Source of the DNA: a virus
Strand: one strand, 5' to 3'
DNA: 21,737 nt
Virus record (IMG/VR): IMGVR_UViG_3300037963_001693
Span: 3,963-25,699 of that record
Position 1 is the first letter of the stretch. Each line of letters starts with the position of its first letter. Of the stretch, positions 5,896-11,611 are shown in pieces. A program made the position numbers and the translations under genes. Under the pieces are notes generated by a model, which was given only the letters and a program-made list of their open reading frames with translations, was not told the origin of the DNA and did not search any database.

Positions 5896-6162
5896 CTACC
5901 ATTTAACTTTATTAGCCCAATAAGCTGCTGACATCTTACCTTTTTTAATATTTTTTCTATGTCTAGCTTTAAACGATTTAGCTCTTTTAGTCATAGTTCT
6001 ATCACCAGTTTTGCCTTGTTGACCAAATCTTATAGTTTTAATTTTACTACCTTCTTTTGCTACAACAATGTGTGATTTTGTTTTGTGACCAGGAGTTCGT
6101 TTAGGTTTATTATAACCTGATACACCAGCTCTTTTGAGTCTTGGGTCTTTTTTTCTACTCAT
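5896..6162 (-). CDS. Basic 88-residue conserved phage protein
   Basis: This protein has a recognisable pattern: DPRLKRAGVSGYNKPKRTPG near the start, then KSHIVVAKEGSKIKTIRFGQ in the middle. It ends with KSFKARHRKNIKKGKMSAAY and WANKVKW. From memory the same words occur in many marine and freshwater phages as a small basic hypothetical protein (possibly DUF6321). The net charge is strongly positive, which would fit DNA or RNA binding, but the biochemical role is not known to me. It starts in an ATGA overlap with the 46-residue gene before it and is followed 6 bases later by the 75-residue gene. Confidence 0.8.
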   Translation of the reverse strand: MSRKKDPRLKRAGVSGYNKPKRTPGHKTKSHIVVAKEGSKIKTIRFGQQGKTGDRTMTKRAKSFKARHRKNIKKGKMSAAYWANKVKW

Positions 6163-6299
6163 TTTCCTTGTCCTCTATAACGTTTTTTATAATAGTTTTT
6201 ACTACCTTTAGTCCCATATTTTGTTCTATGGCTTTGACCTTGCCTGGTTTTTTTCTTACCATTTGTGTGTCTTTTAACTTGTGGTCGTAAACCTCTCAT
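6159..6299 (-). CDS. Very basic 46-residue protein
   Basis: A short ORF of 46 residues starts MRGLRPQVKRHTNGKKKTRQ and continues with GQSHRTKYGTKGSKNYYKKR. Nearly every third residue is Lys or Arg, and there is no hydrophobic core. The ATG at 6299 overlaps the stop of the preceding gene (ATGA), and its own stop overlaps the ATG of the next gene. The double overlap and the shared basic character with its neighbours make it a credible gene despite its size. It may bind nucleic acid in packaging or DNA condensation; this is inference from charge only. Confidence 0.65.
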   Translation of the reverse strand: MRGLRPQVKRHTNGKKKTRQGQSHRTKYGTKGSKNYYKKRYRGQGK

Positions 6300-6478
6300 C
6301 GTTTCTTTTTACGCTTTTTAGCAGTTTTAGCGGCTCTTTTAAAATTTGCTGCAGTAGGAGCGCCTTTGCTTCCAGGTTTTCTCATACGTTCACCTGAACC
6401 TGCTTTAATACGTCTACGCTTAGCGTGTATGTTAGCGTATAATCCTTTTTTCTTACTTTTTCTTTTTTTTACTGGCAC
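6296..6478 (-). CDS. Very basic 60-residue protein with a GTG start
   Basis: The ORF opens with GTG at 6478 and encodes MPVKKRKSKKKGLYANIHAK, a middle part with RRRIKAGSGERMRKPGSKG, then an Ala/Lys helix ANFKRAAKTAKKRKKKR. The Lys/Arg content is extreme, and the end resembles the C-terminal tails of histone H1-like proteins. An AAGGA element lies about 10 bases before the GTG. The first 26 bases overlap the end of the 38-residue gene in another frame. A role in binding or neutralising phage DNA is plausible but not shown. Confidence 0.65.
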   Translation of the reverse strand: MPVKKRKSKKKGLYANIHAKRRRIKAGSGERMRKPGSKGAPTAANFKRAAKTAKKRKKKR

Positions 6479-9815: not shown

Positions 9816-9841
9816 ATTATGAGGGAGTAGGTAGAGCGACT

Positions 9842-9997
9842 ATGCAATCATTATTTATACCGTTAGTTCACTTCTCCTACTTCCTTATATTAAAAGATTT
9901 GGTCCATTCTACCATAAAAGAATCGGGTGTATATGCTCGTTACATAAAACTCAGAAATGAGTATAAAGTCAGAAATGGCGACATTATCTTCGGATAG
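9842..9997 (+). CDS. 51-residue protein of unknown function, possibly membrane-bound
   Basis: The ATG at 9842 follows a weak, distant GAGGGAG site (9821-9827). The protein opens with a hydrophobic aromatic stretch, SLFIPLVHFSYFLILKDLV, that could sit in a membrane, and ends with a basic part RYIKLRNEYKVRNGDIIFG. Its stop lies at the left edge of the long non-coding stretch. Weak start signals and small size keep confidence low. Confidence 0.4.
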   Translation: MQSLFIPLVHFSYFLILKDLVHSTIKESGVYARYIKLRNEYKVRNGDIIFG

Positions 9998-10960
9998 TGT
10001 TTGTGTATAAAATTGGAATATCAATTATGGCGTACAGATTCTCTCCTCGGTGAAAGCCAGGGTTTATCTAGATGTAATTGACTAGCACGATAGGGGTGTT
10101 AGTTGAGTTGGAAACAACAATAAGAAAATCCAAAAGATAATGAGTTAAGTGTCGTTGCGGTACTTGTTATCAGTCAGCATAGGTGAATGTCGTAGAAATA
10201 CACAATCATCGTAGCTAAGACTACTTAAAACTCTAGATAACGACTAGAGACGGTAGGAAGTACTTATACTATTCGCTTCTCAAAAGGAAGTGAGGTATAC
10301 AATTTTGTGCGGTACTTTCACATGACCCTTACTTTGCTATAATATACAAGCGTATTAGCTTCAAAGATAATATACTAGCATATATAACAAAAGGAAAAGT
10401 CACAAAACGTTTTAAATCAAAAGTGTTCTTGTTGTTGTCTGAAATACGATAGCTTCTAGTTGCTCCCAAAGCGCTAGAAAATTGACAAACAGCCAAGTTG
10501 GTCTAATTAACCATTAGTTGGAGCGGTAGCTTCGGATTGAGCTTAGTAGTCGGTTAACAGATTAAAACGATAAGAGTGATTAGCTATACTAATTGAACAT
10601 GACATCGCAGTATGTAGGCAACTATAACTGGATAAAAGACTTAAGGGTAGAAATCCGTACGGGTCTCAAGGAGATGTTGGTAAAGGTGTAATCTCAACCT
10701 TTGCAATACTTACTCAAAGAATTATTTGATGATATATTAATGTGTTGATTTCCCAAAGTATATTTTATACGTTAATATCTACAACATTTGTTAGTGATTG
10801 TAGTGTTATTCGTATTTAACTGAGCAATGGCAAAAAAGCAGACGGATAGAAACGGCAACAGTTATTATATCTGGATAATGGAAGTGAGGTGATGAGCCGC
10901 ATTCTAACCAAAAAATACTAATGTAGGTTGAGCGTTGTAATAGATACAGCGCAATATACC
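9998..10960 (+). ncRNA. Large structured non-coding RNA region (RNA A), GOLLD-like in size and setting
   Basis: No credible ORF is found for almost 1 kb, although genes elsewhere nearly touch. Many helices can be read on the plus strand. An 11-bp stem lies at 10078-10088/10096-10106. GTTG-GAAA-CAAC lies at 10107-10118. CTCTAG/CTAGAG is at 10231-10236/10244-10249. A nested hairpin has TATAC/GTATA (10265-10269/10295-10299) and CGCTTC/GAAGTG. TTCTAG/CTAGAA is at 10454-10459/10474-10479 and ATTAG/CTAAT at 10579-10583/10589-10593. A 9-bp stem with one bulge is capped by GCAA at 10608-10630, and GCGTTGTA/TACAGCGC lies at 10932-10952. The loop TAACC (10508-10512) is complementary to GGTTA (10552-10556), a pseudoknot candidate. 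The ends are approximate. It may be one RNA or two, as a promoter-like site lies at 10335. Confidence 0.6.
10335..10343 (+). promoter_or_regulatory. Extended -10 promoter-like site inside RNA A
   Basis: TGCTATAAT is an exact extended -10 element, identical to the one found for the late module on the other strand. A weak TTTCAC lies 16 bases upstream of the TATAAT hexamer. If active, transcription would begin near 10350 and make a 600-base RNA ending before the HA-domain gene. Similar TGnTATAAT strings also occur inside coding genes, so the site alone is not proof. Confidence 0.35.
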
Positions 10961-10981
10961 TTTTAAAGAAAGAAGGTGAAC

Positions 10982-11611
10982 ATGAAAGTAGAAAAATATG
11001 TTTATAAAGCTAAACCAGTTGATAAACAATCAAAAGTATATAAAAAGTTTATGAAAGTGTTTAAAGCTTATAAAAAGTTTGTAGAGGTAAATAAAAGATT
11101 ACCTATGCAGAGTAGTCCTAACCATATTAGACCAAAGTCTGAAACAAAACTATATCAGTGGGCTGTTGGTAAGAAGAATAGAGCTTCTAAAAGACTATTA
11201 GCGGAATGGCAATATGAATTATTATGTACTATTCCTGGATTCACATGGTCTACACAAAGTAATGTTTGGTTTAATATGTTAACAAACTTATCTGAGTATA
11301 TGTTAAAGTATAATGAAACACCTACTCAATTAAGACCAGAACGTTTTCCAGAAAGAATACATAGAGGAAAATGGATTTCACCAGTAGATGATAAACTACA
11401 TAGATTATCAGTTTGGTGCATGGTACAAAGAAATGCTTACAGAAGAGGTACATTATTACCAGATAGAATGAATGCATTGATAGATATTGGTTTTGATTTT
11501 GAACCAGGTAATGGTCCAGCACATGAACGTGGTAATATTCCAGGTATGGATAGTATAGAAAACATAAAATATCTTAAGAATAAACAAAAACATTCTTGGA
11601 GGTATGAATGA
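10982..11611 (+). CDS. Protein with two helicase-associated (HA) domain repeats
   Basis: I place the start at the ATG at 10982, because the GTG at 10976 is part of the GAAGGTG ribosome site. The 209-residue protein has two copies of the HA (helicase-associated) pattern: a tyrosine-rich helix, G/N-x-x-P, then W-x-x-x-(Q)R, L-x-x-x-R and a final GF-x-W/F. Repeat 1 (about 25-92) contains LYQWAVGKKNRASKRLLAEW and ends IPGFTW. Repeat 2 (about 97-175) contains LSVWCMVQRNAYRRGTLLPD and ends DIGFDF. HA domains are three-helix modules thought to bind nucleic acid and usually follow a helicase, but none is attached here. The gene begins about 30 bases after the last hairpin of RNA A, so it may bind or process that RNA; this is inference. 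Confidence 0.75.
   Translation: MKVEKYVYKAKPVDKQSKVYKKFMKVFKAYKKFVEVNKRLPMQSSPNHIRPKSETKLYQWAVGKKNRASKRLLAEWQYELLCTIPGFTWSTQSNVWFNMLTNLSEYMLKYNETPTQLRPERFPERIHRGKWISPVDDKLHRLSVWCMVQRNAYRRGTLLPDRMNALIDIGFDFEPGNGPAHERGNIPGMDSIENIKYLKNKQKHSWRYE

What the first reader, a model, noticed from the sequence alone, without database searches (positions are those of the whole stretch)
9998..10960. Candidate giant structured RNA in the early module (RNA A)
Almost 1 kb on the early strand lacks a credible gene in a genome where genes otherwise overlap. The sequence instead holds many perfect or near-perfect helices. They include an 11-bp stem at 10078-10106, a GAAA-capped stem at 10107-10118, a GCAA-capped 9-bp stem at 10608-10630 and a final 8-bp stem at 10932-10952. 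The hairpin loop TAACC (10508-10512) is complementary to GGTTA downstream. GNRA loops plus pseudoknots are the marks of large ornate RNAs such as GOLLD, known from phages and prophages, but no tRNA lies nearby as is often seen for GOLLD. It may be a new member or a new class.
Basis: partly seen in the sequence, partly recalled or inferred. Interest (0 to 1): 0.8.

Follow-up and report, generated by a model that had tools for sequence, protein, structure and literature searches.

The report
Divergent GOLLD RNA in a phage
A viral contig with no detectable tRNA genes carries a strongly diverged, full-length copy of GOLLD, a giant phage RNA known to self-assemble into hollow 14-part cages; in sister phages the same spot holds either another GOLLD version or an unrelated small structured RNA that matches no Rfam family.

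Summary
Rfam's GOLLD model (3' domain only) matches 10256-10700 end to end, E = 8e-38; its 141 bits sit just under the curated cut-off of 150. Covariance models built only from well-scoring GOLLDs find the 5' domain at 9924-10167 (E = 2e-11 and 4e-5). The RNA runs from about 9893 to 10702. The reported interval (9998-10960) starts 105 nt late and takes in about 260 nt with no sign of belonging to it. Of 98 Rfam base pairs, 92 are kept, 46 through changes on both sides. The overlapping 51-aa ORF is not conserved. No tRNA was found in the 52.9-kb sister contig.

New points: sister phages with about 90% identical flanking genes carry GOLLD alleles only about 50% identical to this one. Others carry an unrelated ~235-nt structured RNA at the same spot, with no Rfam match. 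None of 18 contigs with the small RNA has GOLLD, and none of 27 GOLLD contigs has the small RNA. The loop predicted to self-kiss (bridge B8) is a different palindrome in two alleles, which favours cage assembly. Function is unknown; I favour a swappable host-interaction role.

The parts
9893..10702 (+). GOLLD RNA gene, full extent (about 810 nt); ends inferred from homology, not from transcripts
   Evidence: Rfam RF02032 E 8e-38, 5' domain models, collinear match of L230 RNA to 9923-10693 E 1.3e-11, head boundary, covariation
9893..10255 (+). 5' (cap) domain of GOLLD, shorter than the 420 nt of env-38
   Evidence: R1 at 9924-10028, 50.2 bits, E 1.8e-11; R2 at 10077-10167, 32.9 bits, E 3.9e-5; A1 covariation
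9900..9915 (+). First hairpin of the RNA; UGG/CCA here, UCG/CGA in L032, UGUC/GACA in L219 (compensatory)
   Evidence: A2 helix 2, columns 8-11 with 22-25
9949..9960 (+). Hairpin CUCA-GAAA-UGAG, equivalent of CCAC-GAAA-GUGG in other GOLLDs
   Evidence: R1 alignment, 5' domain alignment
10078..10118 (+). 11-bp stem followed by the GUUG-GAAA-CAAC hairpin of the 5' domain
   Evidence: R2 alignment
10256..10700 (+). 3' (ring) domain, the part modelled by Rfam RF02032
   Evidence: cmscan 141.2 bits, model 1-416; 92 of 98 Rfam pairs standard, 46 changed on both sides
10335..10395 (+). Variable linker (disordered and inside the cage in env-38); no tRNA here; most variable stretch of the 3' domain between window, L032 and L028. 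Limits approximate
10499..10513 (+). Hairpin UGGU-CUAAUUA-ACCA; the loop holds the palindrome UAAUUA (10504-10509); proposed equivalent of L21a, the self-kissing loop of bridge B8
   Evidence: Rfam alignment; loops compared across GOLLDs; PMC12286853
10608..10630 (+). GCAA-capped stem of the 3' domain
   Evidence: Rfam alignment
10685..10700 (+). 3'-terminal hairpin GGU-GUAAUCUCA-ACC, conserved in GOLLD; its stem covaries in the clade
   Evidence: Rfam alignment; A2 helix 25, 4 of 5 pairs with double changes

Best explanation
Window 9893-10702 (+) encodes a diverged but intact GOLLD RNA of a tailed phage, just past the switch from the leftward packaging/structural genes to the rightward replication genes. 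Shown here by sequence and covariation: it has both GOLLD domains, the variable linker and the conserved 3' hairpin; the structure is under selection; and the locus is exchangeable, with very different GOLLD alleles or an unrelated small structured RNA at one place in sister phages. Inferred from the solved env-38 structure: copies fold into a cap domain (5') and a ring domain (3'), seven form a half-shell, and two half-shells join through self-kissing loops (here probably the palindromic loop 10504-10509) into a 14-mer cage with the linker inside. Inferred and weaker: as no tRNA was found in the linker or the sister genome, the cage here is not a tRNA carrier; presence/absence, strong allelic divergence and replacement by another RNA fit an accessory host-interaction role during infection, such as sequestering a host component or blunting a defence. 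My odds: GOLLD identity about 0.98; cage assembly about 0.75; accessory host-interaction role about 0.35. The confidence given is for identity plus assembly.
For: Rfam GOLLD over the full model, E 8e-38; independent 5' domain models R1/R2 at the right place and order; 92 of 98 Rfam pairs standard, 46 by double change, slid controls 30-43 of about 93; clade covariation A1 and A2 far above shuffles and slid controls; collinear full-length match to the L230 RNA; ORF not conserved; two different 6-nt palindromes in the same loop in window and L230, and GC/CG/AU centres in other GOLLDs; no tRNA in the window or the 52.9-kb sister contig; allele swap and replacement by the small RNA.
Against: Rfam score 141.2 is below the curated cut-off of 150. 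No transcript data. Assembly is not tested. L179-type alleles seem to lack the L21a hairpin, so the proposed contact is not general in the clade. The host-interaction role has no direct evidence: sequence divergence and cassette exchange also occur in neutral accessory genes.
Confidence: 0.75

Rival explanations
1. The RNA belongs to a new class of ornate RNA that only resembles GOLLD.
For: Score under the Rfam cut-off; no match in the phage nucleotide collection.
Against: Full-length Rfam alignment with E 8e-38, GOLLD 5' domain in the right place, unbroken series of relatives from 110 to 330 bits.
Confidence: 0.02
2. It works as a tRNA carrier or tRNA-related compartment, as suggested for GOLLDs with tRNAs in or near the linker.
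For: Many moderately scoring GOLLDs sit among tRNAs and hold one within the linker; PMC12286853 proposes tRNA cargo.
Against: No tRNA found in this linker, in the window, in the 52.9-kb sister contig or in other clade loci scanned. Host tRNAs could still be a cargo.
Confidence: 0.12
3. It is a neutral or purely selfish accessory element, kept by transfer between phages and not by benefit to its carrier.
For: Presence/absence and allele swapping at one locus; a GOLLD in an L. brevis prophage is reported to be dispensable for phage production (stated in PMC7567579).
Against: Structure is held by many compensatory changes and kept at one position in many sister contigs.
Confidence: 0.15
4. It is a long leader that controls the following gene in cis.
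For: Same strand as the next gene, and no terminator-like site between them on that strand.
Against: Different genes follow it in sister phages (HA-domain, 173-aa MKDLLAPF and 54-aa MKERKVIS families), at distances from 28 to 279 nt.
Confidence: 0.04

Closest known systems
GOLLD RNA (Rfam RF02032; env-38 14-mer cage, PMC12286853)
   Same: 5' and 3' domains in the same order, Rfam secondary structure, variable linker, conserved 3' hairpin GUAAUCUCA, about 800 nt, phage location, palindromic loop at the likely B8 position.
   Different: Score just under Rfam's cut-off, about 50% identity even to GOLLDs of sister phages, shorter 5' domain (about 360 against 420 nt), no tRNA found in the linker or sister genome, longer palindrome (6 nt against a 2-nt core) in the proposed B8 loop.
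ROOL RNA
   Same: Large noncoding phage/prophage RNA that forms a cage (PMC12286853).
   Different: Different sequence and secondary structure; no ROOL match here in the Rfam scan.
Abundant ~800-nt RNA of Vibrio phage ICP1 (PMC7567579)
   Same: Giant noncoding RNA in a phage that has no tRNA genes.
   Different: Beside the lysis cluster, and compared with GOLLD/ROOL by length in the passage read; I did not compare sequences.

Membership tests
GOLLD | 3' domain with the Rfam secondary structure | tested here: met
   Full model 1-416, E 8e-38; 92 of 98 pairs standard, 46 changed on both sides
GOLLD | 5' domain upstream of the 3' domain (less conserved in the family) | tested here: met
   Models from well-scoring GOLLDs only hit 9924-10028 (E 1.8e-11) and 10077-10167 (E 3.9e-5)
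GOLLD | Conserved 3'-terminal hairpin with GUAAUCUCA | tested here: met
   10685-10700; stem covaries in the clade
GOLLD | Score at or above Rfam's gathering cut-off (a curation threshold, not a biological feature) | tested here: not met
   141.2 against 150 bits; PMC12286853 accepted cmsearch hits by a cut-off of 1e-5, which this passes
GOLLD | Self-kissing palindromic loop L21a (bridge B8) | tested here: inconclusive
   Palindrome UAAUUA in window, UUAUAA in L230, GC/CG/AU in others; assignment to L21a by position only; hairpin apparently absent in L179-type alleles
GOLLD | Assembly into a 14-mer cage | not testable with these tools
   Needs in vitro RNA and mass photometry or cryo-EM
GOLLD | Phage or prophage location | tested here: met
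   Terminase, portal and DnaB genes in the window; IMG/VR virus record
GOLLD | tRNAs nearby (frequent, not defining) | tested here: not met
   None in the window or in the 52.9-kb sister contig
GOLLD | Expression rises during lytic growth | not testable with these tools
   No transcript data
ROOL | Match to the ROOL model | tested here: not met
   All Rfam families searched at E up to 5 and, for 9990-10990, up to 10; no ROOL match

The most novel reading that the evidence does not exclude
One phage locus is a dedicated slot for a structured RNA, and a compact ~235-nt RNA of a class not in Rfam can take the place, and at least part of the job, of the giant GOLLD cage. The two are mutually exclusive, so whatever GOLLD does could be done by a much smaller RNA, or the two are alternative answers to the same host pressure.
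Probability: 0.3. Interest if true: 0.75.

Novelty: new member of a known kind. Interest (0 to 1): 0.5.

Why it matters
What GOLLD does is unknown. A phage group with no detectable tRNA genes and an intact GOLLD weakens tRNA carriage as the general explanation. Sister phages that differ mainly in which RNA sits at one locus (this GOLLD allele, another allele, or a small unrelated RNA; L178 against L179 is the cleanest pair) are natural swap experiments. The clade also shows that Rfam's cut-off misses real GOLLDs, and that the 5' domain, absent from the Rfam model, can be modelled.

Tried and rejected
Enclosing 15-bp helix 10064-10078/10865-10879 from the single-sequence fold: no better than shuffles and not seen in other GOLLDs. 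The 3' stretch 10703-10975 as a GOLLD part or as a diverged slot RNA: no support. Direct nucleotide search in the phage collection: no match. Host: terminase and DnaB relatives in the phage collection are all below 60% identity and spread over many hosts, so no host is named. Promoter and terminator scans gave counts close to shuffled expectation. A scan of bacterial genomes for the slot RNA with one exact pattern found nothing.

Full report
Observation. The interval 9998-10960 has no conserved coding and folds better than dinucleotide shuffles (9998-10970, z = -3.5, 20 shuffles). Rfam's GOLLD model RF02032 matches 10256-10700 over its whole length with 141.2 bits, E = 8e-38. The gathering cut-off is 150 bits, so routine annotation would leave it out. 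No other Rfam family matches meaningfully.

Extent. Rfam models only the 3' half; in env-38 the RNA is 833 nt with the 5' region at 1-420 (PMC12286853). I collected GOLLD-bearing viral contigs with the conserved 3' motif, aligned the 5' region of well-scoring ones and built covariance models of two 5' segments that contain no sequence of the window's clade. They hit the window at 9924-10028 (50.2 bits, E = 1.8e-11) and 10077-10167 (32.9 bits, E = 3.9e-5), in order and directly upstream of the 3' domain; the next best hits in the window have E = 0.54 and 0.31. E-values of these models are rough by the tool's own statement. A sequence-only profile had already pointed at 9915-10126 (E = 0.0038). 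The RNA of a distant sister phage, L230, matches 9923-10693 collinearly (E = 1.3e-11). The homology boundary on the 5' side is about 9893: sister phages have unrelated sequence, or an inserted small gene, directly before the RNA head. The 51-aa ORF at 9842-9997 is not kept in L179, L180 or L032. The 3' end is the hairpin ending near 10700; in 7 of 9 sister GOLLDs the next ATG follows within 28-36 nt, in L202 after 138 and in L230 after 257. True transcript ends are unknown.

Structure under selection. With the Rfam structure as given, 92 of 98 pairs are standard in the window, 3 are not and 3 fall in gaps; 46 pairs differ from the Rfam consensus on both sides. Sliding the partners by 1-3 positions leaves 30-43 of about 93. 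For the clade, alignment A2 (12 sequences, about 50% identity between types) has 129 RNAalifold pairs with 92.6% of cells paired and 88 pairs with double changes (shuffles 45.0 +/- 3.8; slid versions 35-45% paired). The 5' domain alone (A1) gives 92.3% and 49 pairs (shuffles 26.8 +/- 3.0). These structures were predicted on the same alignments, which favours them; the Rfam and R1/R2 tests do not have that bias.

Cage features. PMC12286853 reports a 14-mer with D7 symmetry whose half-shells join by self-kissing loops, with covarying GC/CG in L21a (bridge B8). By position this is the hairpin at 10499-10513. Its loop CUAAUUA holds the palindrome UAAUUA. L230 can form the same 4-bp stem and 7-nt loop with the palindrome UUAUAA. 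Well-scoring GOLLDs have GC, CG or AU at the loop centre. Two different 6-nt palindromes in the same loop are what an intermolecular self-contact would require; the assignment to L21a is mine, by position. L179-type alleles appear to lack this hairpin, so the contact is not universal in the clade.

Surroundings. Packaging and structural genes (portal, terminase) run leftward; the RNA lies on the rightward strand, past the switch, ahead of genes for a Cas4-like nuclease, a D12-type adenine methyltransferase and a DnaB helicase. That this is the early strand is an inference from gene content. No tRNA was found in the window or in a 52.9-kb sister contig that differs from the window at 2 positions. 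That contig has no terminal repeat and may be incomplete. In contrast, many moderately scoring GOLLDs lie among tRNAs and most of the ten examined hold one inside the linker.

An exchangeable locus. Terminase relatives show that sister phages with 87-94% nucleotide identity in aligned flanking stretches carry at the same place a GOLLD only about 50% identical to this one. Similarity is high up to about 9969 and then drops, and L032 differs from the window mainly at the head of the RNA (12 of its 14 differences in the 5' domain lie there), so alleles seem to be swapped or recombined in pieces; fast divergence in place is not excluded. L178, whose neighbours on both sides are those of L179, has no GOLLD but a ~235-nt RNA closed by a 16-bp stem. 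That RNA is in 18 viral contigs found by one exact pattern, has no Rfam match (L178 and L211), and in ten sequences 17 of 68 predicted pairs carry a double change with few breaks. Searching whole records, the GOLLD 5' model is in 0 of 18 contigs with the small RNA, and the small-RNA model is in 0 of 27 GOLLD contigs (the positive controls ring). Many contigs are fragments and some sister contigs have neither RNA, so exclusivity is strong but not proven, and the locus also gains and loses small genes.

How it probably works. Shown: an intact, selected GOLLD with both domains. Inferred by homology: assembly into the 14-mer cage. Weakly inferred: since no tRNA was found and the RNA is exchanged at a cassette-like locus for other alleles or another RNA, it is best seen as an accessory host-interaction factor. 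Literature fits a non-essential role: a GOLLD in an L. [quoted passage not shown] What is enclosed, if anything, is unknown.

Novelty. The RNA is a diverged new member of GOLLD. The exchange with a small RNA without an Rfam family is the new observation and deserves its own follow-up.

Noticed in passing
L178:1734-1981 (-); also L186, L187, L189, L190, L203, L211, L213, L215, L217 and L264-L280: A ~235-nt structured RNA with a 16-bp closing stem sits at the GOLLD locus of sister phages that lack GOLLD. No Rfam match; 18 viral contigs by one exact pattern; not found with GOLLD in any contig searched.
   Followed up: partly
window 9823-9884: A 9-bp hairpin (GGGAGTAGG 9823-9831 with CCTACTTCC 9876-9884) lies upstream of the RNA and is kept in L178, L179, L180, L032 and L028 whichever RNA follows; perhaps the terminator of the upstream gene.
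   Followed up: no
L032 and L028, between the upstream hairpin and the RNA head: A small gene of about 50 codons (MYIRLEKSFNDYLRISYEGNG...) is inserted directly before the RNA; L184 has its start too. The locus gains and loses small genes.
   Followed up: no
window 9893-9925 against L032 and L028: The first hairpin of the RNA differs strongly between window and L032/L028 although the rest of the RNA is about 98% identical, with compensatory stem changes: a mosaic within the RNA gene.
   Followed up: partly
window 10703-10975: 273 nt between GOLLD and the HA-domain gene have no assigned function. Between window and L028/L032 the 8-bp hairpin 10932-10952 changes only in its loop (10940, 10943).
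   Followed up: partly
L223, L238, L242 (upstream of terminase, early strand): More distant sister phages have ORF-free stretches of 0.8-1.2 kb in this part of the genome without an Rfam or GOLLD match; they may hold further unknown RNAs or short genes.
   Followed up: partly
L073, L082, L067, L119, L099, L018, L071, L100: Moderately scoring GOLLDs in these viral contigs hold a predicted tRNA inside the linker and lie among tRNA genes.
   Followed up: partly
window 5896-6478 (-): Three consecutive small, strongly basic ORFs (Lys/Arg-rich, 46-88 aa) lie between the terminase side and a phosphoesterase-like gene.
   Followed up: no
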